61,693 nt of DNA from Asanoa hainanensis (GTDB lineage: Bacteria > Actinomycetota > Actinomycetes > Mycobacteriales > Micromonosporaceae). The DNA is taken from NCBI RefSeq assembly GCF_900188485.1, contig NZ_FZPH01000028.1, forward strand, positions 1 through 61,693. Reading direction: 5' to 3'. Below are positions 26,045 through 52,863 of this stretch, in pieces. Position 1 is the stretch's first letter, and every line of letters starts with the position of its first letter. The translations under genes and the position numbers were made by a program. The notes under the pieces were generated by a model. It was not told the DNA's origin and did no database searches. It was given only the letters and a program-made list of their open reading frames with translations.

Positions 26045-26869
26045 GTGACAACGTCCACCGCTCCTCCGCTAGACACCAGCCGGTATCCGCGGGTAGCCGC
26101 GTATCTGGACGCTTACTGCTCAGGACCCGGGGCCGGCACCGAGAACGAACCCCACGCCGCCGAGCTCGCCTTCTCTATCGGCCGCGCCCGCGTTTCCCAG
26201 GAGCCGTTCACCGTCGCCACGGTCGACGGTTTCCTCCCCGACCCCCTGTACCAGGACGTGCTGCGCGACTGGCCGCAGCTGACGTTGAACCCCGTCAACG
26301 TCGGGGGCGGCAGCGCCAAACATGTCGGCTCACGCCACAGCGCCGGGCTGCAGAGCTGGAAGCCCGAAACCGTCGACCCGCCGGACACCTGGGGAAGCCT
26401 GGCTCGGCTCACACGCTCGGCTCCGCTCACCCGCGCCTTGTTCACCCGCTTCGCCGACGTCGTCGAGGAAAACCTCGCTCACCCCGATGTACGGAACATC
26501 ACCCAGCCCGGGTTCCGGCTATGGGCCAACCAAGACCAGGGCCAGGCAGAAGCCCTCGGAGCCCACGTCGACTCGCTGCCGAAGCTGCTAACCATCGTGC
26601 TCTACCTCGACCTGCGCGGACCAACCACCGACGAATCACCGGGCCGATGGGGAACCACCACGTACGCCATCGCGCCCGACGAGGTCGAAACCGTGTCCTT
26701 CAGCCCGAACACCGGCCGGACACCGGCCGGACACATCTACTTTTGCCCCAACCGCGCCTTCATCATGCCCAACTGCTCCAGCGCACTACACGGCGTCACC
26801 GGCGGCGAAGCCGGTGTCACCCGGCGCTCACTCATGTGGGGTTACTGGCTGATCACCGCGAAGTCCTGA
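26045..26869 (+). CDS. Fe(II)/2-oxoglutarate oxygenase (prolyl-hydroxylase-like)
   Basis: The 274-residue protein starts at GTG 26045 after AGAGGAAGGAAA. TVATVDGFLPDPLYQDVLRD (about 56-75) is the usual N-terminal entry of P4H-like oxygenases. The iron triad is H-x-D in GAHVDSLPK (about 179-181) and a distal His near LHGVTGG (about 250), with Arg in VTRRSLMWGYW to hold 2-oxoglutarate. It should hydroxylate an amino acid or peptide intermediate. It is the first gene of the biosynthetic operon. Its substrate is not predictable; a beta- or side-chain hydroxylation of the Asn-like unit is one option. Confidence 0.8.
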   Translation: MTTSTAPPLDTSRYPRVAAYLDAYCSGPGAGTENEPHAAELAFSIGRARVSQEPFTVATVDGFLPDPLYQDVLRDWPQLTLNPVNVGGGSAKHVGSRHSAGLQSWKPETVDPPDTWGSLARLTRSAPLTRALFTRFADVVEENLAHPDVRNITQPGFRLWANQDQGQAEALGAHVDSLPKLLTIVLYLDLRGPTTDESPGRWGTTTYAIAPDEVETVSFSPNTGRTPAGHIYFCPNRAFIMPNCSSALHGVTGGEAGVTRRSLMWGYWLITAKS

Positions 26870-26919
26870 TCCGGGCCTCGTCGTCTCCTCCCGCCCTCTT
26901 CCTCCCCGGAGCAACCCAC

Positions 26920-28917
26920 ATGCCTCTCGTCATCGGCTACAACCTCAGCCACGACAGCAGCGTCTGCCTGGTCGACGACGGCCGGATCCGTGCCGCGGCA
27001 GCGCTCGAGCGCAGCTGCCGCATCAAGCGGGGTGTCGTAGCAGCGCATGCCTACGCCGCCGCGATGGCCCGGCTCACCCGCGAAGTCCTCGACGGCGAGC
27101 GGCTTTCGGCCGCCGACATCGACCACTGGATCGCGACATCCACCGAATCACGCGACCAGCAGGACGAGGATCAGCTTGCCGACAGCCTCGGCCTCATCGT
27201 GCCCGCGGCCAAGCGGCTCGCAATGCCGCATCCGGCGCACCACCTCGCGCACGCCTCAGCGGCGTTCTACACCTCCGGATTCGAGCAGGCCTCGGCGCTG
27301 GTCGTCGACGCCTACGGCTCGCGCTACGGCGCCGGCCGCGAACGCGAGACGGGGTTCGCCTTCCGGCCGGGCGAGATGCCGCAGGTCGTCCTGCGCACCG
27401 AGCGCGACCATCATCGGATCGCGGGCCGAATACGGCAGGACGGGACGATCGGGCTGCCCGAGCAGCTCAGCGGCATCGGAGAGCTCTACCGCGTGATCAC
27501 CCTGGCTCTCGGGTTCTTCGAAGCCGGCACGTACGACGATGCCGGCAAGACGATGGGTCTTGCTCCGTTCGGCAAGCGGATTAGCAGGGAAAACCTGTTC
27601 ATCGACGTGACGCCGGGCGGGCTGAGGTTCGACCGCGCCGCCGCGTCGCTCGTCGACCTCGGCTTCGCCGTCCGCGACGCCGCGGGCCTGCGCCTGCTGC
27701 CCCGTCCGGCCGGCGCACCGCTGCAGGACAAACATCGCGACCTCGCCGCCCAGATCCAGATTGAGTTCGAGGAAGCCTGCCTATACCTGGTCCGTGACCT
27801 CGTCTCACGAACCAACCTGCCGTCGCTGGTTCTCAGTGGCGGATGCTTCCTCAACTCCGTGCTCAACGCCCGGCTGCTCAGAGACGCGCCGATCGACCGG
27901 CTGTCGGTCTTTCCCGCCGCCACCGACGACGGCAACGCTGCCGGCGCCGCGTTGTACGCACACCACAACCTCACCGCGGCTGCGGGCCGGCAGCTCAAGG
28001 CCGGGCCGGCACCGCGGCTACAGCACGTCTATTTCGGGCCGCCCCGGCTGACCGGCCGGGACATTCCCGCGTTGGCGCGGGAATGGGGACTGGAGCCGAT
28101 CGAGCATTCCTCGATGGCGGACGCCGCCGCCGCGGCCGCCAAGGCCATCGCGGAGGGACAGATCATCGGTTGGTTCGACGACCGCGGTGAGCTCGGCCCC
28201 CGCGCTCTGGGCGCCCGCTCCATCCTGTGCCACCCTGGGATCCCTGGCATGAAGGACCTCCTCAACCACAAGGTCAAGTACCGGGAGACGTTCCGCCCGT
28301 TCGCCGGCGCGGTGCTGGCCGAGCGGGCCGACAAGTGGTTCGAGATGGCTACCGCCGACAGCCCGTTCATGCTGCAGGTGTGGCCGGTGGCGCAGCACGC
28401 CCGCGGCCAGGTCACCGAGATCGTCCATGTCGACGGCACCTGCCGGGTGCAAACAGTGGCAGCCGACCTGCCCGGCAGCTTCCGGGGGCTGCTGGAGGCA
28501 TTCGACCGGCTAACCGGGCTACCGGTGCTGCTGAACACGTCGTTCAACCTTCGCGGAATGCCCATCGTGGAAAGGCCAGAGGAAGCCCTCGACTGCCTCT
28601 ACGGGTCGCGATTGGACCGGGTGTTTCTCGGGCCGGTCGAGGTCCCGGCCCCGGACTTCGGAGCTCTCGCACCGGCGGCCATCGACATCGCCGAGGCGCA
28701 AACCGATGGTGTCGCGGCCGCGGTGCTGCAGTTGGCCGACGGCGACCGTCCTCTCACGGCCATCGCGCAGGTCGCCGGGGCGAGCGTCGACGACGTCATC
28801 GACATCGCGCTGGACCTTCGCCGCCGAAAGCTGCTGCGCTGGAACAACGGGTTGCCGGCGCTCACACCACCGTCGCTGCCGCTGCCGCAGTACGAAGCGC
28901 AGCCGACGGGACAGTGA
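26920..28917 (+). CDS. carbamoyltransferase (NodU/CmcH/TobZ family)
   Basis: The 665-residue protein reads from ATG 26920 with CCCGGAGC upstream. The N-terminal Kae1-like half has GYNLSHDSSVCLVDDG, metal-binding histidines in HPAHHLAHASAAFY (about 108) and VVDAYGSRYG, with LSGGCFLNSVLN (about 305). The YrdC-like half has RGELGPRALGARSIL (about 423), FRPFAGAVL and LNTSFNLRGMPIV (about 535). It would make carbamoyl-AMP from carbamoyl phosphate and ATP, then carbamoylate a hydroxyl (or amine) of the product. The last about 70 residues (VLQLADGDRPLTAIAQVAG, then a basic helix) are an extra PqqD-like winged-helix-like tail that might bind a carrier or peptide. Confidence 0.93.
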   Translation: MPLVIGYNLSHDSSVCLVDDGRIRAAAALERSCRIKRGVVAAHAYAAAMARLTREVLDGERLSAADIDHWIATSTESRDQQDEDQLADSLGLIVPAAKRLAMPHPAHHLAHASAAFYTSGFEQASALVVDAYGSRYGAGRERETGFAFRPGEMPQVVLRTERDHHRIAGRIRQDGTIGLPEQLSGIGELYRVITLALGFFEAGTYDDAGKTMGLAPFGKRISRENLFIDVTPGGLRFDRAAASLVDLGFAVRDAAGLRLLPRPAGAPLQDKHRDLAAQIQIEFEEACLYLVRDLVSRTNLPSLVLSGGCFLNSVLNARLLRDAPIDRLSVFPAATDDGNAAGAALYAHHNLTAAAGRQLKAGPAPRLQHVYFGPPRLTGRDIPALAREWGLEPIEHSSMADAAAAAAKAIAEGQIIGWFDDRGELGPRALGARSILCHPGIPGMKDLLNHKVKYRETFRPFAGAVLAERADKWFEMATADSPFMLQVWPVAQHARGQVTEIVHVDGTCRVQTVAADLPGSFRGLLEAFDRLTGLPVLLNTSFNLRGMPIVERPEEALDCLYGSRLDRVFLGPVEVPAPDFGALAPAAIDIAEAQTDGVAAAVLQLADGDRPLTAIAQVAGASVDDVIDIALDLRRRKLLRWNNGLPALTPPSLPLPQYEAQPTGQ

Positions 28918-28921
28918 CCCG

Positions 28922-29791
28922 ATGAAGCTGAGCGTTGTCGCGATCGCCCGGAACGAAACGCCGTACCTGCTGGAGTGGGTGGCCTACCAGAGGGTGATCG
29001 GCGCTGACCGCGTCATCATCTACGACAACGGTCACGACGTCGCCGGACACCGCCTGCTCCACGCGCTCGACCGTGCCGGCGCCATCATCTGCGTCCCCTG
29101 GACCGGCCGCTTCCGACACGGACCGCAAGTTCCGGCATACGAGGACGCGTTGGGGCGTCTGCGAGGCACCAGCGACTGGGTGCTGTTCTGCGACCTCGAC
29201 GAGTTCGCCGTCCCTGTCGAGGCCACCCGCCTTACCGATGTTCTCGCCACCGTCGATGACCTGGACGGCATGTGGCTTCCATGGCTGATCTTCGGGTCGA
29301 GCGGGGAACTCGTCCATCGTCCGGAACCCGTCATCGAACGTTTCCAGCGGCGCCAGCACGCAGACGACGACACTGTGACCCCCGTCAAGAGTGTCGTCAG
29401 GCCCGCCCGGGTCGTGCGCCCCCACCTGCATGTGCACCATCTCGACACAGCCGCCTACGCCAACCCGCGCGGAGAGCGTGACTTCCTGCTTGCGCGCGAC
29501 GGCGTCAGCCGCAGGTCCGCTCAGCTGGCCCGCGGTATGGACATCGTCCGGATCCACCACTACATGACCAAGTCGCAACTCGAGTGGCGGGCAAAGGTCG
29601 CCCGCGGCCGCGCCGACAGAGGATGGGCGGACGAATCCGTCTCTCGCGAACATGACGAGTTCGCCCAATGGAACCGAAACGAGGTGCGTGACGCCACGGC
29701 GCTGCGGTTCCTTCCCGCACTGCGTCAGCAGATGGCTGCACTCGCGCAGCTAACTGCCGGCGAGGACACCTCCGCCGGGGCACCGCTATGA
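28922..29791 (+). CDS. glycosyltransferase family 2/92-like protein
   Basis: The 289-residue protein starts 4 nt after the carbamoyltransferase. The N-terminus SVVAIARNETPYLLEWVAYQ, IIYDNGHDVAGH (about 35-50) and the metal/nucleotide-sugar motif CDLDEFAVP (about 96) define a GT-A fold of the Glyco_tranf_2_4/GT92 type. HHYMTKSQLEWRAKVARG (about 215-232) is the conserved C-terminal acceptor-side element of the group. It probably transfers a sugar to the peptide or its precursor, which the carbamoyltransferase could then modify. No sugar-biosynthesis gene is in the cluster, so a common host nucleotide sugar would be used. Confidence 0.8.
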   Translation: MKLSVVAIARNETPYLLEWVAYQRVIGADRVIIYDNGHDVAGHRLLHALDRAGAIICVPWTGRFRHGPQVPAYEDALGRLRGTSDWVLFCDLDEFAVPVEATRLTDVLATVDDLDGMWLPWLIFGSSGELVHRPEPVIERFQRRQHADDDTVTPVKSVVRPARVVRPHLHVHHLDTAAYANPRGERDFLLARDGVSRRSAQLARGMDIVRIHHYMTKSQLEWRAKVARGRADRGWADESVSREHDEFAQWNRNEVRDATALRFLPALRQQMAALAQLTAGEDTSAGAPL

Positions 29792-31077
29792 ACGGCCACA
29801 CCTTCTCGGCCGGACAGGTGGGCACCGCGCGCTTCCCGTTGACCTGCATCGACCTGGCCGATCCGGTCTTGTACACCGCGCCCGACGGCGGCCTCGACCT
29901 GCTGCGCCAGCTGCAGCGTGAACACCCGGTCTACTGGAATCACCGTCCCGGCGGTGCCGGATTCTGGGCGTTCACGCGCTACGCCGACGCGGTGACGGTC
30001 TTTCGGAGCAAGAACGCTTTCACCAGCCGACAGGGCATCCAGGTCGGCCAGGCCGGAGGCATGGAACAGCCCGCTGCCGGCACGATGCTCGTCCAAGCTG
30101 ACCGTGGCGATCACCGCCGCATCAAGGCCACGCTCAGCCCGCATCTGAGCGAAACCGCGATGCAACAGCTCCTGCCTGTATTACGTGCCGCCGCTCGAAT
30201 GGCGGTGGACAAGCACGCCGACGGAACCGAGTTCGACTTCATGACCGAGATCGCCGCCGAACTGACATGGTCGGTGCTCGGCGCCATCCTCGGGATCCCA
30301 GCCGCTGACCGCAGGACGGTGGCACGGTGGACCGAGACGGCGTTCGGAGCGACGAGCGGCCAGAGGCAAGACCATCCCGCTGCCGAAGGCGGCGGCACCG
30401 CTTCGCCGGCCGTCACCGCGAACGCCGAACTCTTCGGGTACTTCGCGGATCGCCTCCGCGAGCGTCGCAGAAACCCGGGCGACGACATCATCAGTGCCCT
30501 GGCCCGCCCCCAGGCGGGCAACGACACCGGCCTCACGCCCACGGAGATCCTCGTCAACGCGCACCTCCTGCTCGCCGGTGGGCACGAGACGACACGCCAC
30601 GCGCTGGCCGGCGCCGTTGTCGCACTGGCCGAGCATCCCGGGCAGTGGGCCCGCCTGCGCAAAGACCCATCGCTCATGCCGGCCGCCGTGGAAGAAATCA
30701 TCCGATGGTCCGCGCCCAGCCTGAACATCGTGCGTACCGCGACCACGGACATCGAGATCGCTGGTCAGAGGGTCAGGGCGGGGCAGCAGGTGAGTCTGTG
30801 GCCGCCGATCGCCAACCGGGACCATGCCGCGTTCCCGGACGCCGAGTCGTTCGATGTGGGCCGGGAACCAAACCGGCACCTGAGCTTCGGGATGGGGAGC
30901 CACTTTTGCCTCGGCGCGTGGACCGCCCGGCAGGAGATTCGGATCCTGCTCGAAGAACTGGCCACACGCGCAACGGTCCCGGAAGTCAGCGGCAGCGCCC
31001 GCCGAATGCGGTCCAACCGCACCTGGGGCTACCAGACCTTGCCCGTCAGGCTCATCACCGCCCACCCGTCGACATGA
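29788..31077 (+). CDS. cytochrome P450
   Basis: The 429-residue protein overlaps the preceding gene by ATGA. The I-helix has LLLAGGHETTRHAL (about 267), the K-helix ExxR is EEIIR (about 310), and the haem loop is FGMGSHFCLGAW (about 366-377) with the thiolate Cys. The I-helix Gly-Gly-His-Glu-Thr-Thr retains the acid-alcohol pair for oxygen activation. It is bacterial class I, needing an external ferredoxin and reductase, neither encoded nearby. It should hydroxylate or crosslink a cluster intermediate; many NRPS P450s act on carrier-bound amino acids. Confidence 0.94.
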   Translation: MNGHTFSAGQVGTARFPLTCIDLADPVLYTAPDGGLDLLRQLQREHPVYWNHRPGGAGFWAFTRYADAVTVFRSKNAFTSRQGIQVGQAGGMEQPAAGTMLVQADRGDHRRIKATLSPHLSETAMQQLLPVLRAAARMAVDKHADGTEFDFMTEIAAELTWSVLGAILGIPAADRRTVARWTETAFGATSGQRQDHPAAEGGGTASPAVTANAELFGYFADRLRERRRNPGDDIISALARPQAGNDTGLTPTEILVNAHLLLAGGHETTRHALAGAVVALAEHPGQWARLRKDPSLMPAAVEEIIRWSAPSLNIVRTATTDIEIAGQRVRAGQQVSLWPPIANRDHAAFPDAESFDVGREPNRHLSFGMGSHFCLGAWTARQEIRILLEELATRATVPEVSGSARRMRSNRTWGYQTLPVRLITAHPST

Positions 31078-34000
31078 GCTACAACCCCGCGCCGAGAAAG
31101 GAGAGCCCGTTGAGCACGAGCACCGCCGACGCTGAAGCGCTCAGCGAATCGCAGCTCGCGCTGCTACACCTGACCCACCGAGCCGGTCAGCATCACCCTC
31201 GGTTGACCGCGGTCAGCGTCTGGCCGCGCCCGATCGACGTCGACATGTTCGCGGCGGCCGTGAACTGGCTGAGCGACCGATACCTCGCGCTGCGGTCCGC
31301 GGTCGACGTCACGGCCGGCCGGCCGGCCTGGATCGAGCGGCCGGGCACCGTTCCGGCGATCGTCTTCGCCGGCAGCGGCCCGGGCGCAGCCAATATTCTT
31401 TCCGAGGTACGCAGTGAGCCCTTGGCCATGCAAGAAGCTCCTTTGATCAAGTTCGTCCTGGTGGAACGCGACAGCACCGTCGAGGTGCACACCGTCAGCC
31501 ACCCGGCGCTGCTCGATCCCGCATCGGCGGCCACCCTGCACCGGCAGTTACGCGCCCGATACACCGGTGCGCCCACGGAACTCGCTAACGGCACGCGGGC
31601 CGCGACGGCAATCGACGTTGAGAGTCCTCGAGGGCCGCAAGGAGCGCGTCGCGACGGCGTCTTACCCGCTGAGGCCCTCCCGGACACGCCGACGGAAGGC
31701 TGGGCAGAAACCTTCGTCGACTTCGTCCCGAGCACCCCGGCATTCTGGGCACACGGCTCCGCACGGGACGCAGCGGAGACCGTCGTGCGGATGCCGCTGC
31801 CCGACGACGTCAACGCCAGGCTGGGCCGCTTCGCCGACCGCTGCGGGATCTCCCTGGCCGACGCGGCGCTGACCGCCCACGTCAAGGCGGTAGCCCTCGC
31901 CACCGGACGTTCCGACCTCGCCGTCGGAGTCGAGACCACACCCACCGACACCGAGCACGCCGTTCCTGTCGGCGCGCGCTGCGTCACCGTCCCTGTACGC
32001 GTAAGGACCGGGGGCGGGACCTGGGCCGACCTGTCCCGGGAAGTGACCGCTGCCCGGGACCGGGCCGCGCGTGCCACCGACCGGTCAATGCTGCGGCTGC
32101 ACCACCGGCTGCGGTCCGACCGGATCCTCGACACCACGTTCGCCGTGACCGTCCTGCCCGATCCGTGCTCGGCTTCAGACCTGGACCGCGCAACCTCGGA
32201 GCACATCGAGTTCAGCGCACCGTTTGACGGAACCTGCCGGGTGGACGTCCTGCACCACCCGGACAGCAGCCAGTTGACGCTACAAATCACCGCGGGGCCC
32301 GAAATAACTGCCGGGCAGGCACGCGAACTGCTGCGGCTGCATGCCACCGCGCTCGGCGCCATCGACGCCTCCGCCAACCACCAAGACGTTTCATCGCTGA
32401 CCGGCGACCAGGAGGAGTTGGTCCTGCATCAGTGGAACGGCCGGAACATCGCGTACCCGCCGCCTTACTGCGTTCATGAGTTGTTCGAGCAACAGGCCCG
32501 GCGAACACCCGACGCGGTCGCGGTCGTCGGCACGCACGAACGGCTGACCTACCGACAGCTGAACGAGCGGTCAAACCAGCTCGCTCACAAGTTGCGAGCG
32601 GACGGCATCACCGTCGGGTCGGTCGTGGGGATCTACGCCCGACGAGACGTCTCCATGATCGTCGCCTTCCTCGCCGTACTGAAGGCCGGCGCCGCCTACC
32701 TTCCCCTGGAGCCGGGACAGCCCGCAGATCGGATCCTCTACCTGCTGCAGGATGCGGGCGTCTCGACCGTCCTCACCGACGCCGTCTACCACGCCCAGGT
32801 GCCGGCCGGCGCCTGGACGGTGCGGCGGATGGACGTCGGCGACACGCTCCAAGAGCCGGTTACCGCCCTTGGCCGCACCTGCAGCCCGCAGGACCTGATG
32901 TACGTGATTTACACGTCCGGGTCGACCGGAGTTCCCAAAGGCGTCGAGGTTCCCCACGCCGGCGTGGCGAACTACCTGCGCTGGTGCGTGCAGGAGTACG
33001 CCTCTCACGGTGACGGCGGGGCCGCGCTGTTTTCCTCCGTGGCCTTCGACATGGTGGTGCCCAACGTCTACACGCCGCTGATCATGGGCCAGCGGGTGTG
33101 CGTTCTCGACGAGACGCTCGACACCGGTCAGGTCGCGCGGCGCCTAAACGAGCTCGCCCCCTTCAGCTTCCTCAAACTCACCCCAGGTCAGCTGGCGGTC
33201 CTCGGTGAGCTGCTCACACCGGAACAGGCACGCTCGCTGGCGCACTTCCTCGCCGTGGGAGCCGACGCCTTCCCGGTGCGGATCATGCGGAGCTGGCGCC
33301 GGATCGACGACGCGACACCGATGATCAACGAATACGGGCCGACCGAGGCGTCCGTCGGCAACTGCGTGCACACGGTCACCGGAGACGAAGTCGGCGAGTC
33401 CCTGCCGATCGGCCGGCCCATCCCCAACACCACCATGTACGTCCTCGACGACGCATTGCGCCCGGTTTCCGTGGGAGTCCCCGGCGAGCTCTACATCGGA
33501 GGCGCCTGCGTCGTGCGCGGCTACACCGGCAAGCCACATCTCACCGAGGAGAAGTTCCTGCCGGACCCGTTCAGCTCCGTGCCGGACGCCCGGATGTATC
33601 GCACCGGCGACATCGGCCGGTGGCTTCCTACCGGCCTGCTGGAGTTCCTCGGCCGCATCGACGATCAAGTGAAGATCCGCGGCTACCGCGTGGAGCCCGC
33701 CGAAGTCGAGGCCGCCCTGGTCGCCCACCCCTCCATCGACGCGGCCGTGGTCACCGTGGTCGGGGCGACGCGAGCAACGTTCGCTCTGGCGGGGTACTAC
33801 GTGTCAGCCGACGGACTCGCCCCGGACGAGGCGCGCGCCCACCTCAACAGGCACCTGCCGGACTACCTCGTCCCCTCACAGCTGCACCGCATCCCCGCCG
33901 TACCGCTCAACGACAATGGCAAGGTCGACCGGAAAGCGCTGCACGCACAGGGGGCCACCGGGTCAGCACAGCGGCGCCGGCGAGCCGCCCTGGACGGGCC

Positions 34001-34244
34001 GGCCGGTCAAGCGCTGCGAGACGCATGGACCACCGTGTTCGGACGCCCCCCTGCGGATCCGGACGAACGGCTGCCCGACGACGACATGTTCGCCGCCAAC
34101 GCGATCCGTCTGGCGGCACTCGTCACGGCCGAAGGAGCCGTCACGGCACCCGCGGCATTCCGGCTGACCTGCGTCGCCGCCACGGTCGGTGAGCTGGCGG
34201 AACTGCTCGAGCAGAGCGCCCACAAGCCGAGACCACGACCCTGA
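31074..34244 (+). CDS. NRPS protein: degenerate C - A (Asn-like) - degenerate T
   Basis: The 1056-residue protein reads from ATG 31074 (ATGA overlap); a TTG at 31110 with GAAAGGAG is a rival start. The condensation-like domain (about 20-420) has SHPALLDP instead of HHxxxDG, so it looks inactive. The adenylation domain (about 445-950) is complete: YTSGSTGVPKG (611), NEYGPTE (751), YRTGD, GRIDDQVKIRGYR (859) and NGKVDRKAL (945). By hand alignment its ten-residue code is DMPKLVEVGK, closest to the Asn code DLTKLGEVGK that I recall. The carrier-like tail reads DDDMFAANAIRL (1001): the Ser for phosphopantetheine is Arg, so it cannot be loaded. It probably aminoacylates a separate T domain in trans. 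Confidence 0.88.
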   Translation: MSYNPAPRKESPLSTSTADAEALSESQLALLHLTHRAGQHHPRLTAVSVWPRPIDVDMFAAAVNWLSDRYLALRSAVDVTAGRPAWIERPGTVPAIVFAGSGPGAANILSEVRSEPLAMQEAPLIKFVLVERDSTVEVHTVSHPALLDPASAATLHRQLRARYTGAPTELANGTRAATAIDVESPRGPQGARRDGVLPAEALPDTPTEGWAETFVDFVPSTPAFWAHGSARDAAETVVRMPLPDDVNARLGRFADRCGISLADAALTAHVKAVALATGRSDLAVGVETTPTDTEHAVPVGARCVTVPVRVRTGGGTWADLSREVTAARDRAARATDRSMLRLHHRLRSDRILDTTFAVTVLPDPCSASDLDRATSEHIEFSAPFDGTCRVDVLHHPDSSQLTLQITAGPEITAGQARELLRLHATALGAIDASANHQDVSSLTGDQEELVLHQWNGRNIAYPPPYCVHELFEQQARRTPDAVAVVGTHERLTYRQLNERSNQLAHKLRADGITVGSVVGIYARRDVSMIVAFLAVLKAGAAYLPLEPGQPADRILYLLQDAGVSTVLTDAVYHAQVPAGAWTVRRMDVGDTLQEPVTALGRTCSPQDLMYVIYTSGSTGVPKGVEVPHAGVANYLRWCVQEYASHGDGGAALFSSVAFDMVVPNVYTPLIMGQRVCVLDETLDTGQVARRLNELAPFSFLKLTPGQLAVLGELLTPEQARSLAHFLAVGADAFPVRIMRSWRRIDDATPMINEYGPTEASVGNCVHTVTGDEVGESLPIGRPIPNTTMYVLDDALRPVSVGVPGELYIGGACVVRGYTGKPHLTEEKFLPDPFSSVPDARMYRTGDIGRWLPTGLLEFLGRIDDQVKIRGYRVEPAEVEAALVAHPSIDAAVVTVVGATRATFALAGYYVSADGLAPDEARAHLNRHLPDYLVPSQLHRIPAVPLNDNGKVDRKALHAQGATGSAQRRRRAALDGPAGQALRDAWTTVFGRPPADPDERLPDDDMFAANAIRLAALVTAEGAVTAPAAFRLTCVAATVGELAELLEQSAHKPRPRP

Positions 34245-45287: not shown

Positions 45288-45619
45288 GCGATGACGTCCG
45301 CGCAGCCGGCAGCCAACCTCCGTCGGCAGCCGAACCCGAGACCGCGACCTGTTCCGGTGCCGCCGCGGCGGCGCCGGGACCTGCCCTGACCGCCGAACAG
45401 ATCGCCGCGTTGTGTACGGGCATCGCGGGAACCCCGATCGGCGCCGACGACGACATACTCCTGGCCGGTCTGAGCAGCCTCGACCTGGTCCGGCTCACCG
45501 GGGCAGTCCAGCAGGCCGTCGGTGCGCGACTCACCGCTCTGGACGTCCTCGACCATCCCACCCCGCGCGCACTCGCGACACTCCTACACACCCGACCACA
45601 GACCGCCGGCCATGGCTGA
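45284..45619 (+). CDS. stand-alone peptidyl carrier protein
   Basis: The 111-residue protein overlaps the preceding gene by ATGA. After an about 38-residue Ala/Pro/Glu-rich linker comes one four-helix carrier domain: DDDILLAGLSSLDLVRLTGA (about 55-74), in which the second Ser of GLSS is the phosphopantetheine site, and LDVLDHPTPRALATLL at the end. It is a natural acceptor for the trans-acting adenylation domains whose own carriers are dead. Confidence 0.87.
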   Translation: MSDDVRAAGSQPPSAAEPETATCSGAAAAAPGPALTAEQIAALCTGIAGTPIGADDDILLAGLSSLDLVRLTGAVQQAVGARLTALDVLDHPTPRALATLLHTRPQTAGHG

Positions 45620-48600
45620 CACGACGGCCCCCAGCTCACCGGTGCGCGTGACCGGCGTGTTCGCCGCCACCGGTGGTGAGCCGTTCCTGCCGGCGCATCC
45701 CGCTCAACGCGGCCTGCTGCTGTCCCGGGCCGCCGGCGGTGAGGGCATCAACTGTGCCTACGCGTACACCGTCACTGGCGCCCTCGATAGCGACCGTCTC
45801 TGCGCGGCCTACCGGAAGACGTTGGCGACCTACGACGCCCTGTACCTGACCTGGCACCCCCGCCACGGCTGGGCACGGGGCACAACACCGCGTGTTGAGG
45901 TGCGCTACGTGGACGCGCGAGCCACCCCCGACGCCAACGAATGGTTGCGGGATCAAGTCGACCGTCACCGGCGACGCCGCTTCGATCCTGCCGCAGGCCC
46001 CCTCGCGGCCGTGGAGGTCTTGCGACTGAACGACGACAGATGGGCAGTCGTCGAGATAATCGATCACATCGTCGCCGACGGCCAGTCGATGGCCCTGCTG
46101 CACCGAGCGGTCGCCACACGGTACCGGCACGACGAGACGGCGACACCGCCCGAGCTGCGGCAGCCGCCGGCCTACTCGGCGGCGCTGTCCGCCGCAACCG
46201 ATGCCGACGAACACACCCGTTCGTACTGGGCACGCCAGTTCGAGGGGTTCACCCCCACCAGCGGCGCCGCCGATGGCAGCGATGCCCAGGTCTGGCGCAC
46301 GACCCTCGACAGCATCACGCTTGGCGACATCGATCGTGGCGCTGCCCGGGCGCGCGCGACCCGGGCGGGTGTCCTTCTGGCCGCCCACGCCCACGCACTC
46401 GCCCGGTACCAGGGCCGTGGAGACGTCACCACCTTCGTCGCGATCGACACCAGAACTGCGAATCAGCTGGACATGTTCGGCCAGATGACGACCGTGGTGC
46501 CGGTGCGGATCCAGCACGACTGGGCAGACACGCTCGGCGTTCACGTCGGCCGGGTAACCCGATGCCTGCTGGAACTGCGTGAGCACGCCGCAGTCGACGC
46601 CACGCTGTTGGACGAGCTGGGCGCACCCGCCGCCCTCACCACGCCCGACGCCGCGGTGCTCGTCGTGCAGCGACGCGACGACCCCGCCATCGCCGATAAC
46701 GACGCCACGGCCCGGCGCATCGACCTGCCGAGCACCGACCAGGCCGGCGGCCTCATCACCATGGCGACACAAAACCCGGACGGGCGTCTGGACCTCGTCG
46801 TCCGCGCCCCGGCGGGCAGTTCCTTCGCCAAACACCTGCCCGCGCTCGGCGCCACGATAGGTGCCTTTCTTTGTGCCTTCGTCGACGCGCCCGCGACACC
46901 GCTGCATAGCGACACCCTCTTACCCGCCGACGCGCGGGCAGCCGTCGAGCGGACCGCGACCCCGCGCCGGCCCTACCCGTTCCGCGCCGTCGAGGCCGCC
47001 GCGATGGCAACCTTGCTGGAACACCCCGAAATCGTCGTGGTCGAGGACGGCGGGCTGACCTACACCGCGAGGCAGCTGCACCGGAGCGCCGAGGAGATGA
47101 TCCAGGCGCTGCGGTCCGTCGCCAAGCCCGGCGACTGCGTCAGCGTGGGCGGCCTACCCTTGATCGACCGTATCGCCGCCTTCCTCGCGACGCTGACCGT
47201 GAACGCGGTCTACGTGCCGTTCGACGACTCGACCGGCACCGATCCGGCACCGATGGAACGGCGATGCCGGGCCGTCGCCCGCATCACCGCCACCGGTGTC
47301 GACCGTCTCCGCGTATCACCCGGTCATGCTCGGCCGCCAGCCGGGCCGGATAGCCCTGCCTACATCATCTTCACGTCCGGCACAACCGGAACCCCCAAGG
47401 GCGTTGTGGTCAGCCGGGCCGCGTTATCGAACCTGATCCAAGGAGAGGCGCAGCGATTCGAGATCTCCGCCGGCAGCAGAGTCCTGCTGATCGCACCCCC
47501 GGTCGTCGACCCGTGGATCTGCCACGTGGCCGGCTCGTTGACGGCAGGAGCGACCCTCGTCCATGTCGATCCGGCGACAAGCGACCTGAGTTCCGCTCTG
47601 GTGAGCGCCCGAGTGACCCACGCCTTCCTGCCCGCACCCATGGTGCGCCTGCTCGCCGGTGCCGACGCGCCCGCCCTACAGATGCTCGCCTCGGCCGGGG
47701 ACCATTGCCGAAGTGCGGACCTCGCCTCCGCGCCCGGCGCGCGGCATTTCAACATCTACGGCCCCACCGAGGCGACCGTCACCGCCGCCGTCGCCACCGT
47801 GACCGGCGGCGCAGAGCCGGTGCCGGTCGGCGCGCCCATCCGCGGGCTCGGCGCCCGGGTGCTCATCGACAACGCCGCTTCCGCACCGCCGGGCGTGTCC
47901 GGCCACCTGCTGCTCACCGGCGCTGGCGTCGCTCTTGGATACCTCGAGGACGCCGAGCTGACCCGCCAACGGTTCCGCGACGACCCTTGCTCGCCCGGCC
48001 GCCGCGGCTACCTCACCGGAGACGTGGCGCTGCTCGACCATGACGGGCAACTGGTGATCACTGGACGGACGGACCGGCAGGTCAAGATTCGCGGAACCCG
48101 CGTCGAGCTCGACGCCGTCGAGGCGGCAGCCCGGTCAACCCGGCTGTGCACCGACGCCTGCGCGACAACGACCGTACGGGACGCGGCGGCCGATCTGGAA
48201 CTGATCCTGTTCGTCGCTGGCTGCCCGGATGCCGCACAGTTGGACCGGGCCCTACGCCGCGACCTGCCGCCGGCGGCGGTTCCGCACCGGCTCGTGCCGG
48301 TAACCGCCATCCCGCGGACCCCATCGGGACAGGTGGATCAGACGGCGTTGCCGCTCCCCGAGCCCGTGACCGCAGCCCGGCGCCCCGGGGAAACGGGCCC
48401 GCTCGCCACGGCGTGGACGGCCGTCCTGGGGACGCCGCCGGCCGACGACGACGACTTCTTCGCTGCCGGCGGGGACTCGCTGACCGTGCTGCGTCTGGTC
48501 CGCACCGCCCGCGACAGCGGGCTGACCGTGAGCCCGGCCGATGTGTATTCCCACCCTCGCTTCATCGACCTGCAGCAGCTGTGTAGCCCCGCACCGCGTG

Positions 48601-51062
48601 AGGCAACCATGCCCGCACCGGCCACCGTCATCGAGCTGAGCCCCACGCAACGATGGTTCTTCGCCCTACAGCTTGCCCAGCCGCACCGCTGGCAGCAGCG
48701 CCATCTCATCTCGTTCGATGTGCTGCCGCCGCGAACAACGCTGGAACAGGCGATGTCCGCGCTGATCGGCGCGACACCGGTTCTGCGCGCGGTCTTCGAC
48801 ACCCCGGACTCTCCCGCACATGCCGCGCACGTTGACTACGTCGCCGTCGAGGTCCTGGACAGCGATGCCACCGACCAGCGGCTGGAGGCGGCGATCTCGT
48901 CGCTGCACGACGCCGTCGACCACCGCGCCGCCCCGCTGCTGCGCGCCCTCGCCGTCCGCGACCAGCACGGTTCCGGGGTGCTCGTCCTGGCCGCGCATCA
49001 CCTCGTCATTGACGTGTGGTCATGGCGGGTGCTGGAAGACCGGCTCCTTGCGCTGCTGTCCGGGGAACCGGCTCAACCCGACAACGGCTTCTCCGCGTTC
49101 ACCGACGCCGTCCTGCGGCAGCACCGGGCAGGGGCGTTCACGCTCGATGCCGCCGAGTGGCGGCAGCGACTGGCAGCCGGCCGCACCGGACGAATGGACG
49201 CCCAGCCCCGGCGCGGCCACCGACTGACCGTCGAGCTCGGACCTGCCGACCGGATCCGCAGCCGCTGGCAACGCCCACCGTCTCGGGTGCTACCCGCCGC
49301 TCTTGGCCACGCGCTAGCCGTGACTGAAGGCCCGGGAGCCACCGTCGTCGACGTGGAACGCAACGGCCGCACCACCGTTGACGAGATGGATCTCAGCGCG
49401 GCCGTCGGCTGGTTCGGCCTCCACCACCCCATCGTCGTCGAACACGTCCCGCTGACCGAGTCCGCCGTCGACCGGATCAACGCCGGCCTTGAGGAGGCGC
49501 CCGACGCCGGGCTCAGCTACGGTGCGCTGCGCTGGTTACCGGCCGAGCACGACGATCTGCGGATCGGCCGGTTCGCTATGGATCTCCGTCTCGACGACGA
49601 CGCGACGCAGCCACACAGCACACCGCTGATCCGCCGGCTCGCCGCCGTGCCCGCGTCCGCCGCAGGCGCCGGCAATCTTCTGCCCTACGAGGCGGCCATC
49701 ACCTTCCGCCAGCAATACGCAGACATCCAGGCAGTCCTCGACTTCGACCCAGACCGTCTCCCGGACGCCCACGCCGCCGCGATACTCGACGCCCTAGCCG
49801 ACGCGATTCGCCGCACGACGCCGGCCGCCGACACACCGGCACGCCTCCGCCCAGCGAGCACGATCCCGGCCAGCGCAATGCAACAGATGATGCTGCACCA
49901 CGCCACCGGAGGCCCCGGCCGTTACCTGCCCCGGCAGCTGATCGCCGTCTCCGGCGTCGCGGACACCGCGGCATTCGTCGACCTGCTGGGCGACCTTTGC
50001 GCGCGCTTCGACCCCTTCCACCGGCGTTTCGACACCGACGGCCGCACCATCGTCCAGCGGTGGTTGCCAGACGGCGCCCCCGCGATCAGCCTCGCTCCTG
50101 GCGGCCGTCCCGCAGCCCTGCAATGGGTCGACGGCCCCGACACCGTCAGCGCCGCCGACGCCGTGACCGGGTCGCCGCTGGTCGACATCACGCTCTTCTC
50201 CCAGGACGACACACTTCTGCTCGGCATGCAGACTCACCACGCCCTGATGGACGGAGCCAGCAACCGCGCCTTCCTGCACCTGCTCGACGCCCTGGCCGCA
50301 CACCTCGACGGGGGGCCCGCGCCGCACCTACCGTCATCCGCGCGGATGCGCCGGCTGCTGTGCAAGCACGTCGCCGCAGAGACGGCGAACATCAGCGTCC
50401 CGATCAGCCACGGGCCACCACCACCTCCAACTGCCGGGGCAGGCCCGGTCCTGCTCGACGTGGAGGTCTCAGCAGCCACGATGAGTCAGCTACGCGGCTG
50501 GGCCCGGGACCGCCGCGTCGACACGAAAGCCGCTCTGGCATCCGTCGTCGCCCACGCCGGCCGTGACACCGTCGGCGCACGCACGCTGCACGTGGTGACC
50601 AGCGGCCGCGACCCCGACATCCCCGGCTCGGACGCGGCCCTGGGCATGCTTTGGTACCTGCACCCCTTAGGCATCGACGGCGACCGGGACTCCATCGCCC
50701 ACTCCGTCCACCAAGGCTCGCCCGCACTACCCGCAGCCCGCGCAGCGGCCGCAGGATGGCCTGGCTGGAACACCCCTGCGATCAGCTTCAACTACCTCAA
50801 GCAGCACCCGCCTGAAGAACGCAGCAGGATCCGGCAACTGGCGTACCGCGACGTGTTCCATTTTCCCGTCCAAGTTGAGGCCACCGTGCGCGCGGACGAC
50901 AGCGCCCGGATCCGCTGCACCACCCTCGGCGATCGCGATCAGGACGCGGTACACCGGCTCGCTCGGCGGCTAATGGAACGACTGGACGGCGGGGAGATCG
51001 TGCCGGCGCAACCCCACCCGCCGGGACGGCCCGGGACAGAAGGCCGGCATGCGACGCCCTAA
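45612..51062 (+). CDS. NRPS protein: C - A - T - E - C
   Basis: The 1816-residue protein overlaps the carrier gene. C1 has IDHIVADGQS (150; second His and DG kept). A has IFTSGTTGTPKG (585), NIYGPTEAT (712), YLTGD and GRTDRQVKIRGTR. Its A10 is PSGQVDQTAL (904), with Gln replacing the catalytic Lys. The hand-aligned code is DPCFAAIVT plus Gln, with no match I recall. T is DFFAAGGDSLTVL (946). The epimerisation domain has HHLVIDVWSWRVL (1127) and AVGWFGLHHP (1264). A final condensation domain has THHALMDGAS (1540). There is no thioesterase. The last residue should become D-configured, and the terminal C domain probably releases the peptide by amide or ester formation with a free nucleophile, or by cyclisation. 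Confidence 0.92.
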   Translation: MADTTAPSSPVRVTGVFAATGGEPFLPAHPAQRGLLLSRAAGGEGINCAYAYTVTGALDSDRLCAAYRKTLATYDALYLTWHPRHGWARGTTPRVEVRYVDARATPDANEWLRDQVDRHRRRRFDPAAGPLAAVEVLRLNDDRWAVVEIIDHIVADGQSMALLHRAVATRYRHDETATPPELRQPPAYSAALSAATDADEHTRSYWARQFEGFTPTSGAADGSDAQVWRTTLDSITLGDIDRGAARARATRAGVLLAAHAHALARYQGRGDVTTFVAIDTRTANQLDMFGQMTTVVPVRIQHDWADTLGVHVGRVTRCLLELREHAAVDATLLDELGAPAALTTPDAAVLVVQRRDDPAIADNDATARRIDLPSTDQAGGLITMATQNPDGRLDLVVRAPAGSSFAKHLPALGATIGAFLCAFVDAPATPLHSDTLLPADARAAVERTATPRRPYPFRAVEAAAMATLLEHPEIVVVEDGGLTYTARQLHRSAEEMIQALRSVAKPGDCVSVGGLPLIDRIAAFLATLTVNAVYVPFDDSTGTDPAPMERRCRAVARITATGVDRLRVSPGHARPPAGPDSPAYIIFTSGTTGTPKGVVVSRAALSNLIQGEAQRFEISAGSRVLLIAPPVVDPWICHVAGSLTAGATLVHVDPATSDLSSALVSARVTHAFLPAPMVRLLAGADAPALQMLASAGDHCRSADLASAPGARHFNIYGPTEATVTAAVATVTGGAEPVPVGAPIRGLGARVLIDNAASAPPGVSGHLLLTGAGVALGYLEDAELTRQRFRDDPCSPGRRGYLTGDVALLDHDGQLVITGRTDRQVKIRGTRVELDAVEAAARSTRLCTDACATTTVRDAAADLELILFVAGCPDAAQLDRALRRDLPPAAVPHRLVPVTAIPRTPSGQVDQTALPLPEPVTAARRPGETGPLATAWTAVLGTPPADDDDFFAAGGDSLTVLRLVRTARDSGLTVSPADVYSHPRFIDLQQLCSPAPREATMPAPATVIELSPTQRWFFALQLAQPHRWQQRHLISFDVLPPRTTLEQAMSALIGATPVLRAVFDTPDSPAHAAHVDYVAVEVLDSDATDQRLEAAISSLHDAVDHRAAPLLRALAVRDQHGSGVLVLAAHHLVIDVWSWRVLEDRLLALLSGEPAQPDNGFSAFTDAVLRQHRAGAFTLDAAEWRQRLAAGRTGRMDAQPRRGHRLTVELGPADRIRSRWQRPPSRVLPAALGHALAVTEGPGATVVDVERNGRTTVDEMDLSAAVGWFGLHHPIVVEHVPLTESAVDRINAGLEEAPDAGLSYGALRWLPAEHDDLRIGRFAMDLRLDDDATQPHSTPLIRRLAAVPASAAGAGNLLPYEAAITFRQQYADIQAVLDFDPDRLPDAHAAAILDALADAIRRTTPAADTPARLRPASTIPASAMQQMMLHHATGGPGRYLPRQLIAVSGVADTAAFVDLLGDLCARFDPFHRRFDTDGRTIVQRWLPDGAPAISLAPGGRPAALQWVDGPDTVSAADAVTGSPLVDITLFSQDDTLLLGMQTHHALMDGASNRAFLHLLDALAAHLDGGPAPHLPSSARMRRLLCKHVAAETANISVPISHGPPPPPTAGAGPVLLDVEVSAATMSQLRGWARDRRVDTKAALASVVAHAGRDTVGARTLHVVTSGRDPDIPGSDAALGMLWYLHPLGIDGDRDSIAHSVHQGSPALPAARAAAAGWPGWNTPAISFNYLKQHPPEERSRIRQLAYRDVFHFPVQVEATVRADDSARIRCTTLGDRDQDAVHRLARRLMERLDGGEIVPAQPHPPGRPGTEGRHATP

Positions 51063-52863
51063 CCGCCGCGAGACCGCCGACCACATCGCGACGCTTGTGA
51101 CGTCGGCCCTCGTGCCAGTAGGTCTGCTGACACCTGCCTGGTGGCTGCTGAGCTTGCTGGCTGCCGACCTACTGACCGAGGCATGCCGCGACAGTCTGGG
51201 TGCCTCCAACCGCGCGGTGCAGAACCGGAGCGCCGTCGCTAGGGCGGGCCTTCGCGGCGTCGCTGCGCTAGCCGGGCTCGCCGCCGTCCAGAGCCGGGCG
51301 TTGCCGGTGATCGCCGGTTTCGCGGTGCTGGTCTGCTCCCAACTCGGCGCTGTCGGGCTATCGCTTCTGCGGCGGCAGCTCGCGCAGCACCGAACTTTGC
51401 CATTCATCACCCGCAACATCGACCTGGCCGAGCTTCGTATCCCTGCCCCACCTGGCCAGTTGTTGCGACTCATCGACCCCGGCGTGGAAAGATTCGGGAC
51501 CAGCGCGATAGCGGTCGCGGTCGCCGCGACCGCCGCCACCGACCGGCCGGCGGTCGCAATATCCACTGCAGTAACGGTCCTGACAGGTGAGACTGCATGT
51601 GCTGTCGCCCTGTCGGCTCACGTGCGCCGCAACAAGCATCTGGCGAACCGACGATCCGTGATCGACGTCATCCGGCGCCAGGTGGAGAGCTTCCAGCCAC
51701 GACTGATGCTGTACGCACTCAGCCATCCGACCGACCGCATCCACGTCGCGATGTGGCTGCCCGTATTCGAGCGGCTGCCAATGCCGACCATCATCGTGAT
51801 GAGAGATCGCGAGATCTCCTACCTGATCGAGGAGGACTCCTTCGAACTCAACCCGCCGTCCTGCCCGCTTCTCGTCGGTGCGTCGTTCGGCGACCTGAGA
51901 GCCGTCATGCCACAGGATGTGGCCATCACATTCTTCCCCAGCGGCCTGATGGACAACTATCTCGTTGCAGCGCACCTACCCTCGTCACGGCTTGTCCTGT
52001 TGAACCACGGGGACAGTGACAAGAACAGCAGCGCCAGTCGCGCTGACCTCCTGTACGACCAGGTATGGGTGGCCGGTCGGATCGGGCGGGAGCGCTATCT
52101 GCGCGCCCCTTTTCATCTCGACGAGGACCGCATCGTGGAGATCGGCCGCCCACAGCTCGCCGGGTTGTCCGCCACAACACGGCGCAATTGGAACACGCCG
52201 TTCGGCATGACCGTACTATATGCGCCGACGTGGGAGGCGTGGAACGCCGACAACAACTACTCGTCGCTAGCAGAACGTGGCACCGCCATAATCGATGCGC
52301 TTCTGGCGCACCCAACAGAGCTGCGAGTGTGGTTCAAACCTCACCCGAAGACGGGATTTTTCTCCGAACAGGCACGCCGGGCGCGAGACGACATCTCCCA
52401 GCGCCTAGAGGCGGCGAACGCGTCGGCTCCACCTTCTGCCGCACCCGAGCAACCGCACCGCACCATTACTGACTCCCAGCGGATGCTCCACGAATACTTT
52501 GATGAAGTGGACCTTCTCATTACCGACGTCTCCGGAGTAGCGTCCGACTTCGTTGCCACCCAGCGGCCATTTGCTATGGTCAACATGACTTCGCATACAA
52601 ACGACGAGTTCAGGCATAATTTCCCGGTGGCGGCGGGCGCCTACATCATCGGCCGAACCGCGAATGACGTCGGCGACTTCATCGACGCATGTATGCGGTC
52701 GTACCCCGACGATCCCCTCGCCGACGCCCGTAGAGATCTGGCTAATAGTCTTCTCGGGTCGGACTATCAAGACTCATTCCCACGATTCGAACTGGCAGCT
52801 AACGACCTCCTGAACTCCGGCCGGATGGGGCTGCGGGACCACCCGGCCCACGAAGGCGGCTAG
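51049..52863 (+). CDS. membrane-anchored CDP-glycerol glycerophosphotransferase-like protein
   Basis: The 604-residue protein starts inside the end of the NRPS gene. Hydrophobic helices lie at about 15-42, 64-105 and 145-190. The C-terminal half is TagB/TagF-like: WVAGRIGRERYL (about 341), VEIGRPQLAGL, VLYAPTWEAWNADNN (about 387), WFKPHPKTGFF (about 428) and VDLLITDVSGVASDFVATQR (about 484), the paired nucleotide-phosphate and acceptor motifs of the family. It might add a glycerol-phosphate to the product or to the cell wall. It might also have kept only its membrane role. Being coupled to the NRPS operon argues for function in the pathway, in export or in self-protection. Confidence 0.75.
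   Translation: MRRPNRRETADHIATLVTSALVPVGLLTPAWWLLSLLAADLLTEACRDSLGASNRAVQNRSAVARAGLRGVAALAGLAAVQSRALPVIAGFAVLVCSQLGAVGLSLLRRQLAQHRTLPFITRNIDLAELRIPAPPGQLLRLIDPGVERFGTSAIAVAVAATAATDRPAVAISTAVTVLTGETACAVALSAHVRRNKHLANRRSVIDVIRRQVESFQPRLMLYALSHPTDRIHVAMWLPVFERLPMPTIIVMRDREISYLIEEDSFELNPPSCPLLVGASFGDLRAVMPQDVAITFFPSGLMDNYLVAAHLPSSRLVLLNHGDSDKNSSASRADLLYDQVWVAGRIGRERYLRAPFHLDEDRIVEIGRPQLAGLSATTRRNWNTPFGMTVLYAPTWEAWNADNNYSSLAERGTAIIDALLAHPTELRVWFKPHPKTGFFSEQARRARDDISQRLEAANASAPPSAAPEQPHRTITDSQRMLHEYFDEVDLLITDVSGVASDFVATQRPFAMVNMTSHTNDEFRHNFPVAAGAYIIGRTANDVGDFIDACMRSYPDDPLADARRDLANSLLGSDYQDSFPRFELAANDLLNSGRMGLRDHPAHEGG

What the first reader, a model, noticed from the sequence alone, without database searches (positions are those of the whole stretch)
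26045..52863. Uncharacterised dissociated NRPS cluster with trans-loaded carriers
Two A-domain proteins (31074-34244, 35552-38686) have lost the carrier Ser (Arg and Val in its place) and have broken HHxxxDG motifs. Intact carriers without cognate A domains sit in the C-T protein and a lone T protein. Counting intact-looking parts gives 4 A, 4 T and 4 C. This fits a starter (A-MT-T), two trans-charged steps (C-T; C plus T) and a final C-A-T-E-C step. I know of no characterised cluster with this exact set, though single-domain NRPS lines such as the uridyl peptide antibiotics share the trans-loading idea.
Basis: partly seen in the sequence, partly recalled or inferred. Interest (0 to 1): 0.92.

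Follow-up and report, generated by a model that had tools for sequence, protein, structure and literature searches.

The report
Dissociated NRPS cluster with spare DnaE
A soil-bacterium plasmid carries enzymes for an unknown small peptide, built on separately loaded carrier proteins, beside a spare copy of the cell's main DNA-copying enzyme, which suggests that the peptide is a rare kind of antibiotic that blocks bacterial DNA replication.

Summary
Two A proteins (31074-34244, 35552-38686) have broken condensation motifs and carriers without Ser, and four intact carriers sit elsewhere. The contig is plasmid-like, from an Asanoa species. (1) The cluster is not unique: nine further orthologous clusters turned up in Asanoa, Streptomyces, Actinacidiphila, Streptosporangium and Nonomuraea. 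Eight of the nine lack the second (glycine-type) A protein but keep the other broken A protein and the four carriers, so three A domains serve four carriers and trans loading is old. (2) A second dnaE (replicative DNA polymerase alpha) with a DUF6300 gene lies beside 8 of the 10 clusters. It comes from two unrelated dnaE lineages, and in Streptomycetaceae one dnaE type was paired separately with deeply diverged clusters. The polymerase looks active and is under purifying selection. Best reading: a roughly four-unit carbamoylated peptide that inhibits DnaE, with the extra dnaE as self-resistance, as proposed for nargenicin (a polyketide). Against it: dnaE-DUF6300 is a common plasmid module, one close dnaE relative has no cluster, the Streptosporangium cluster has no dnaE nearby, and no resistance residue stands out. 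Product, specificities and resistance are inferred.

The parts
20388..20705 (-). DUF6300 small protein, overlaps the end of dnaE
   Evidence: Pfam DUF6300 2.9e-16; 39% to a DUF6300 that follows dnaE on a Streptomyces plasmid
20702..24244 (-). second dnaE, DNA polymerase III alpha; ORF open to 24388; proposed self-resistance target copy
   Evidence: Pfam; 59% to own chromosomal DnaE1; catalytic Asp motifs kept; dN/dS 0.054 against A. siamensis
24453..25649 (-). HTH/XRE regulator between dnaE and the cluster
   Evidence: Pfam HTH_3 5e-9
26045..26869 (+). probable 2OG-Fe(II) oxygenase, orthologs in the other clusters
   Evidence: 40-51% to the 'hypothetical' genes of L004, L005, L006, L012; conserved H-x-D...H; 5 of 7 family members hit 2OG-FeII_Oxy_3, best E 0.011, the window member itself none
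26920..28917 (+). O-carbamoyltransferase (NodU/CmcH type)
   Evidence: Pfam Carbam_trans_C 4.6e-59; 55-60% to orthologs. My searches used 26923-28914, one residue shorter
28922..29791 (+). glycosyltransferase (Glyco_tranf_2_4/GT92-like), seen in Asanoa clusters only
   Evidence: Pfam 1.8e-15; no hit in the other clusters searched
29788..31077 (+). cytochrome P450
   Evidence: Pfam 8e-25; 49-57% to orthologs
31074..34244 (+). C*-A-T* trans-acting adenylation protein 1, Asn-like pocket; C motif broken, carrier Ser replaced by Arg
   Evidence: Pfam, conserved in orthologs
34296..35555 (+). M20 hydantoinase/carbamoylase-family amidase
   Evidence: TIGR01879 356.7 bits against a cut-off of 204
35552..38686 (+). 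C*-A-T* trans-acting adenylation protein 2, Gly-like pocket, Asanoa only; C motif broken, carrier Ser replaced by Val
   Evidence: Pfam
38683..39627 (+). TauD-family dioxygenase
   Evidence: Pfam 4.8e-39
39624..42311 (+). A-FkbM methyltransferase-T; unusual A domain (FSSSVRQ, no Asp in the usual place)
   Evidence: Pfam
42308..43990 (+). C-T didomain, intact carrier without own A domain
   Evidence: Pfam
43980..45287 (+). stand-alone C domain with HHxxxDE motif
   Evidence: Pfam 1.7e-10; motif kept in 10 of 10 clusters
45284..45619 (+). lone carrier protein (GLSSL)
45612..51062 (+). C-A-T-E-C protein; terminal C, no thioesterase found
   Evidence: Pfam; E and C told apart by motifs read (recalled motifs)
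51049..52863 (+). protein with hydrophobic N-terminus and a CDP-glycerol glycerophosphotransferase-like domain; role unknown
   Evidence: Pfam 3.2e-7

Best explanation
This is a plasmid-borne, dissociated NRPS pathway for a small carbamoylated peptide of about four units, and the product probably inhibits the bacterial replicative polymerase DnaE. Shown: two A proteins lack the carrier Ser that would hold a substrate; four intact carriers sit on other proteins; the layout is conserved; a second, intact, selected dnaE lies beside it. Inferred: A-FkbM-T starts with an O-methylated acid or unusual amino acid; the Asn-like A protein (and in Asanoa the Gly-like one) charges the C-T carrier and the lone T in trans; the HHxxxDE C domain works with the lone T; C-A-T-E-C adds and epimerises the last unit, and its terminal C domain releases the chain in place of a thioesterase; two dioxygenases, a P450, the carbamoyltransferase and the M20 amidase tailor it. 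The extra dnaE keeps replication running while the product is made, as a drug-insensitive target copy.
For: Domain anatomy and conservation in 10 clusters. dnaE-DUF6300 lies 0.4-2.6 kb from the biosynthetic genes in the window, A. siamensis, the annotated S. cellulosae record, NBC_00015, A. glaucinigra, NBC_01724, A012304 and S. diastatochromogenes. Asanoa: a third dnaE in exactly the 2 of 6 genomes that have the cluster. Plasmids: 11 of 67 dnaE records are at least 88.9% identical to the NBC_00015 copy (itself included); 10 of these 11 hold the cluster carbamoyltransferase and the 11th (NBC_00280) has another NRPS cluster 2 kb away sharing the FSSSxRQ A domain, the Asn-like A domain and the HHxxxDE C plus T. 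Other plasmid-type dnaEs: 0 of 28 sampled have an NRPS hit in the 4.5-8 kb fetched on either side. Two origins: holding the Asanoa and Streptomycetaceae cluster dnaEs (with the NBC_00280 copy) together is rejected. One dnaE type sits beside two cluster lineages at distance about 1.7, while the dnaEs differ by 0.04-0.14; within lineages the cluster/dnaE ratio is 1.9-4.1, between them 12-44. In 6 comparisons between the two lineages the fetched flanks share one stretch outside cluster and dnaE (0.7 kb, 69%). Polymerase and PHP motifs intact, dN/dS 0.054. Precedents: narR/ngnU beside the nargenicin cluster (PMC8922275, passages) and a second dnaN (griR, mypR) in griselimycin/mycoplanecin NRPS clusters (PMC10817943, passages).
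Against: dnaE-DUF6300 is a widespread plasmid module without NRPS neighbours, and the window contig has ParA/ParB, so dnaE may serve the plasmid. A. siamensis shares the surrounding DNA too, so that pair cannot separate the two. The Streptosporangium cluster is complete without dnaE on its contig; Nonomuraea MG754425 has none on its contig, which ends inside the cluster. A prediction noted was not borne out: the one new close dnaE relative (G704, 88.6%) has no NRPS hit in the 22.8 kb and 31.6 kb fetched on its two sides. The split pairing rests on distances from quick trees. Candidate resistance residues overlap no more than chance (3 shared columns, P 0.07, control pairs 0 to 8), and the three nargenicin-contacting residues are unchanged.
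Confidence: 0.61

Rival explanations
1. The NRPS is a trans-loaded peptide pathway, but dnaE-DUF6300 is a plasmid maintenance or replication module and its closeness to the cluster is incidental (shared plasmid ancestry or an insertion hotspot next to dnaE).
For: dnaE-DUF6300 occurs on many actinobacterial plasmids with varied neighbours; the window contig carries ParA, ParB, Lsr2 and an integrase; the S. cellulosae, NBC_00015 and A. glaucinigra plasmids show a single place at E up to 1e-200, so the cluster-linked copy is their only such dnaE; Streptosporangium has the cluster without dnaE nearby; G704 has the dnaE type without a cluster.
Against: NBC_01724 carries two dnaEs about 214 kb apart and only the cluster-type one lies at the cluster; the cluster-type dnaE was paired separately with two deeply diverged cluster lineages and a third NRPS; a second unrelated dnaE lineage sits beside the Asanoa cluster; in 6 comparisons the fetched flanks of the two Streptomycetaceae cluster lineages share one 0.7 kb stretch (69%) outside cluster and dnaE.
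Confidence: 0.28
2. A conventional collinear NRPS in decay: the two A proteins are dying modules and the cluster is non-functional in Asanoa.
For: Broken C and T domains in two proteins; A10 lysine replaced in the C-A-T-E-C protein of Asanoa and Nonomuraea.
Against: For the first A protein the same losses are shared by orthologs at about 41-50% identity, with open frames except in S. diastatochromogenes; dN/dS of the 12 biosynthetic genes tested is 0.12-0.57 between the two Asanoa clusters.
Confidence: 0.06
3. dnaE marks a DNA-damaging product (bypass or repair polymerase) rather than a DnaE-binding inhibitor.
For: Extra polymerases can help damaged cells (recalled); dnaE is the only replication gene I identified at the cluster.
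Against: By tree it is a DnaE1-type replicative polymerase with intact PHP motifs, not of the DnaE2 type (the 31% copies); I saw no repair gene among the proteins I scanned or in the annotated orthologous clusters.
Confidence: 0.05

Closest known systems
Nargenicin biosynthetic cluster with narR/ngnU (dnaE homologue)
   Same: A second dnaE immediately next to a biosynthetic cluster, proposed self-resistance; the product blocks DnaE (PMC8922275, passages)
   [quoted passage not shown] here an NRPS. The three nargenicin-contact residues are unchanged in the cluster DnaEs. The narR/ngnU sequence itself was not compared
Griselimycin and mycoplanecin clusters (griR, mypR = dnaN)
   Same: NRPS cluster with a duplicated replication gene as self-resistance (PMC10817943, passages)
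   Different: Target there is the clamp DnaN; here the polymerase subunit DnaE and a dissociated NRPS
Uridyl peptide antibiotics (pacidamycin type)
   Same: Dissociated NRPS with stand-alone carriers and trans loading (recalled)
   Different: No nucleoside assembly genes seen among the window proteins scanned; carbamoyltransferase, A-FkbM-T starter and dnaE are here instead
GE81112 cluster
   Same: Unusual dissociated NRPS with dioxygenases and a carbamoylated residue (recalled)
   Different: Not compared by sequence; recalled target is translation initiation and I recall no dnaE there

Membership tests
Dissociated, trans-loaded NRPS | A domains on proteins without a functional carrier | tested here: met
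   Ser absent in both window A proteins; Arg, Gln or eroded in the orthologs of the first that cover the site
Dissociated, trans-loaded NRPS | Intact carriers without own A domain | tested here: met
   C-T and lone T keep Ser in all 10 clusters
Dissociated, trans-loaded NRPS | Transfer of the aminoacyl group in trans | not testable with these tools
   needs purified proteins and mass spectrometry
Uridyl peptide antibiotics | Genes for the modified uridine and its attachment | tested here: not met
   none among the window proteins scanned; not every small ORF was scanned
Target-duplication self-resistance cluster | Second copy of an essential target gene adjacent to the cluster, on top of the housekeeping copy | tested here: met
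   three dnaE-type genes in G000: window, DnaE1 at C16:256675 and a DnaE2-like at C16:198779; that DnaE is the target is inferred
Target-duplication self-resistance cluster | Linkage kept across independent lineages | tested here: met
   8 of 10 orthologous clusters, two dnaE origins, separate pairings; exceptions Streptosporangium and Nonomuraea (truncated contig); G704 has the dnaE type without a cluster
Target-duplication self-resistance cluster | Copy looks functional | tested here: met
   motifs intact, dN/dS 0.054
Target-duplication self-resistance cluster | Copy is insensitive to the product | not testable with these tools
   product unknown
Target-duplication self-resistance cluster | Shared resistance substitutions in the copies | tested here: inconclusive
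   window 674 and 676 (630 and 632 in the M. tuberculosis chain) changed in both lineages, but the overlap is not above chance and the non-cluster NBC_00846 copy shares the change
Nargenicin-type cluster | Polyketide macrolide assembly genes | tested here: not met
   no ketosynthase in the Pfam hits; not every small ORF was scanned
Griselimycin/mycoplanecin type | dnaN copy in the cluster | tested here: not met
   the copy is dnaE; no dnaN in the Pfam hits

The most novel reading that the evidence does not exclude
A rare family of plasmid-borne NRPS pathways builds a shared DnaE-binding core (unusual FSSSxRQ starter domain, Asn-like trans A domain, HHxxxDE condensation domain plus lone carrier) used in at least two different peptide types, and actinobacterial plasmids carry dnaE-DUF6300 modules as an exchangeable reservoir of polymerase-inhibitor tolerance that is captured repeatedly by such clusters.
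Probability: 0.4. Interest if true: 0.87.

Novelty: new variant of a known kind. Interest (0 to 1): 0.74.

Why it matters
Among the polymerase inhibitors tabulated in PMC7694242 (passages), nargenicin is the only one acting on DnaE that I recognise as a natural product. A conserved NRPS family tied to extra dnaE copies would give a second, chemically unrelated class with the target named in advance and named strains that carry it (S. diastatochromogenes ATCC 21481, A. siamensis NBRC 107932). It would also supply a clear natural test case for trans-loaded NRPS logic with three A domains for four carriers.

Tried and rejected
Rejected: decay of a normal NRPS (losses of the first A protein conserved). 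Rejected: dnaE as the chromosomal DnaE1 displaced onto the contig (the chromosomal copy is present, 59% identical). Not supported: a shared resistance substitution. Tried without use: AlphaFold of the 26045-26869 protein alone (mean pLDDT 33.5; discarded); profile search of that family against PDB sequences (no match up to E 1); PDB search of 51049-52863 (no match up to E 1). A prediction from the dnaE side was checked and failed in its single new case (G704). From the cluster side, 7 of 392 Streptomyces genomes matched: two are the known clusters and the five weak hits lack HHxxxDE; 341 genomes of the Nonomuraea family gave only the two known. Counts are lower bounds, because only 4 or 5 candidates per genome were scored. 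A-domain pocket codes were read by eye with recalled anchor positions, not with a predictor. L027, L028, L029, L032, L034, L035 hold a related carbamoyltransferase in other NRPS clusters, and L036 (a Myxococcales MAG) a distant one (32%); these seven were left out of the ortholog set and used only in the carbamoyltransferase tree. The dnaE tree holds only matches that came with loci; I left out partial or DnaE2-type sequences (L009, L055-L059) and two duplicates (L049, L054), and the frameshifted S. diastatochromogenes dnaE. Papers are open-access PMC only; passages, not whole papers, were read.
Full report
What is there. The window is one whole contig (C8, 61,693 bases) of an 8.64 Mb genome. 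ParA and ParB (58966-61448), Lsr2 (17242-17619) and a phage-type integrase (8249-9424) make it plasmid-like. The gene set from 20388 to 52863 is listed under parts.

Check of the observation. Four carriers are intact. I add that the lone C domain reads HHxxxDE, that the first C of the large protein reads DHxxxDG, that its A domain has Gln for the A10 Lys in Asanoa, and that the A domain of the A-FkbM-T protein lacks the usual Asp (FSSSVRQ). Motif roles are recalled.

Orthologous clusters. The core (oxygenase, carbamoyltransferase, P450, C*-A-T*, M20 amidase, TauD, A-FkbM-T, C-T, C, T, C-A-T-E-C) was found in nine further clusters: A. siamensis (88-97% protein identity, cut at a contig end); S. 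cellulosae/althioticus plasmids (seven records that score alike, counted once; one was read in full), NBC_00015, A. glaucinigra and NBC_01724; Streptomyces A012304, S. diastatochromogenes ATCC 21481 (frameshifted assembly), Streptosporangium KLBMP 9127 and Nonomuraea MG754425 (contig ends inside the last gene). The family is rare: 2 of 354 genomes of the window's own family, the two Asanoa; 2 of 392 Streptomyces (five weaker hits lack the motif); 2 of 341 of the Nonomuraea family. The Gly-type A protein and the glycosyltransferase were found only in the two Asanoa clusters, and the last gene only in the window, where the A. siamensis contig is cut. In the other eight clusters three A domains face four intact carriers. 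Pockets read by eye are Asn-like for protein 1 and Gly-like for protein 2 (recalled codes).

The second dnaE. The Asanoa genome has three dnaE-type genes: the window copy, the chromosomal DnaE1 (59%) and a DnaE2-like copy (31%). Within the genus only the 2 of 6 genomes with the cluster have the third copy. In a sample of 61 genomes of the family no other copy than that of A. siamensis (96%) exceeds 67%. The dnaE-DUF6300 pair stands 0.4-2.6 kb from the biosynthetic genes in 8 of the 10 clusters. In Asanoa it is upstream, behind an XRE regulator; in Streptomycetaceae it is downstream, in two orientations.

Is the linkage more than shared ancestry? The dnaE tree puts the Asanoa copies and the Streptomycetaceae cluster copies in different parts, and holding them as one clade, the NBC_00280 copy included, is rejected (log-likelihood loss 382, p-AU 1e-104; long branches are involved). 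The tree of nine concatenated biosynthetic proteins separates S. cellulosae/NBC_00015 from A. glaucinigra/NBC_01724/A012304/S. diastatochromogenes, with Asanoa and Streptosporangiaceae between them (the tool warns of long branches). Cluster distance between these lineages is about 1.7 while their dnaEs differ by 0.04-0.14; within lineages the cluster-to-dnaE ratio is 1.9-4.1, between them 12-44 (S. diastatochromogenes not included). The same dnaE type was therefore paired separately with each lineage, or exchanged there. In 6 comparisons between the lineages the fetched flanks share one stretch outside cluster and dnaE (0.7 kb, 69%); the NBC_00280 flanks share short stretches with S. cellulosae (0.9 and 0.25 kb) and NBC_00015 (0.9 kb). 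The close copy on NBC_00280 lies 2 kb from a different NRPS that shares the FSSSIRQ A domain, the Asn-like A domain and the HHxxxDE C plus T (best E 2e-43 and 6e-13 for C and T).

Controls. dnaE is common on actinobacterial plasmids (67 records at E up to 1e-200, of which 60 were listed). Of 11 records at 88.9% or more to the NBC_00015 copy, 10 are the records with the cluster carbamoyltransferase and one is NBC_00280; the other 56, all under 80%, are not among the 10. Seven of those 10 score alike, so these are about four independent cases. Other plasmid-type dnaEs had no NRPS hit nearby in 12 of 12 named records (6-8 kb on each side where the record allows, checked by tblastn; Amycolatopsis AA4 lies by a YcaO/TfuA pair) and in 17 of 17 stretches of unnamed Streptomyces genomes (about 4.5-8 kb on each side). 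One stretch is the same DNA as S. cynarae's, so 0 of 28 in all. In 392 Streptomyces genomes three have the close dnaE type: two with the cluster, and G704 without any NRPS hit in the 58 kb fetched. I had noted the opposite prediction beforehand, so this counts against the reading. Streptosporangium has the full cluster and no dnaE on that contig; by eye its flanks look like ABC exporters (not scanned), which could be another route to self-protection.

Is the copy functional? Catalytic Asp motifs, PHP motifs and the residues that correspond to M. tuberculosis Gln638, Arg667 and His787, which contact nargenicin (PMC8922275, passages), are intact. dN/dS between the two Asanoa copies is 0.054, lower than for chromosomal DnaE1 (0.088), the regulator (0.088) and the 12 biosynthetic genes tested (0.12-0.57). 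Three otherwise conserved columns are changed in both lineages, two of them (window 674 and 676) just before the Gln638 equivalent. The overlap is not above chance (P 0.07), control pairs overlap at 0 to 8 columns, and one non-cluster plasmid copy (NBC_00846) shows the same change. An insensitive enzyme is thus plausible but not shown.

How it most likely works. A-FkbM-T loads and methylates an unusual starter; C-T and the lone T are charged in trans by the A proteins; the stand-alone HHxxxDE C domain serves the lone T; C-A-T-E-C adds a last, epimerised unit and releases it through its terminal C domain, as no thioesterase domain was found. Dioxygenases, P450, carbamoyltransferase and M20 amidase tailor the product. 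DnaE is its probable target and the adjacent dnaE the self-resistance copy. Domain facts and linkage are shown; substrates, order, product and target are inferred.

Literature. Precedents are nargenicin (narR/ngnU, a dnaE homologue; PMC8922275, passages) and griselimycin/mycoplanecin (griR/mypR, dnaN copies; PMC10817943, passages). In the listings of searches (25 of 48 shown; 15 of 18 shown), 67, 71, 92 and 93 of the open-access library I saw no report of a dnaE-linked NRPS cluster; subscription papers and MIBiG were not available.

Noticed in passing
L112/L115 (NZ_CP108060.1, 122597-144060): A second NRPS type on the NBC_00280 plasmid shares three modules with this cluster and sits beside the same dnaE type; a peptide deformylase gene follows it. 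The S. cellulosae plasmid (L004 31683-32249) also has a peptide deformylase next to its dnaE.
   Followed up: partly
L122 (Amycolatopsis sp. AA4 plasmid, NZ_CP024895.1): dnaE-DUF6300 lies near YcaO, TfuA and MFS genes, with a radical SAM gene about 5 kb away; possibly another biosynthetic cluster next to a spare dnaE.
   Followed up: no
L109-L111, L118-L120, L122: dnaE followed by DUF6300 is a recurrent pair on actinobacterial plasmids; I do not know a function for it.
   Followed up: partly
G003 (Asanoa), C3:1344461-1347991 (in L107): One Asanoa genome shows only a divergent DnaE1 (62% to the window copy) besides its DnaE2-like copy; five of the non-Asanoa genomes sampled carry two replicative-type dnaEs.
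   Followed up: no
window 2741-3525 and 6988-7721: About 70% similar DNA segments repeated within the plasmid backbone (inferred from cross-matches in the comparison).
   Followed up: no
L027, L028, L029, L032, L034, L035: Related carbamoyltransferases (55-63%) stand next to other, different NRPS genes in Micromonospora, Catenulispora, Nonomuraea, Saccharothrix and Streptomyces.
   Followed up: partly
window 45612-51062: The A10 lysine of the large protein's A domain is Gln in both Asanoa clusters and in Nonomuraea, so this A domain may be weak or need help in trans.
   Followed up: no
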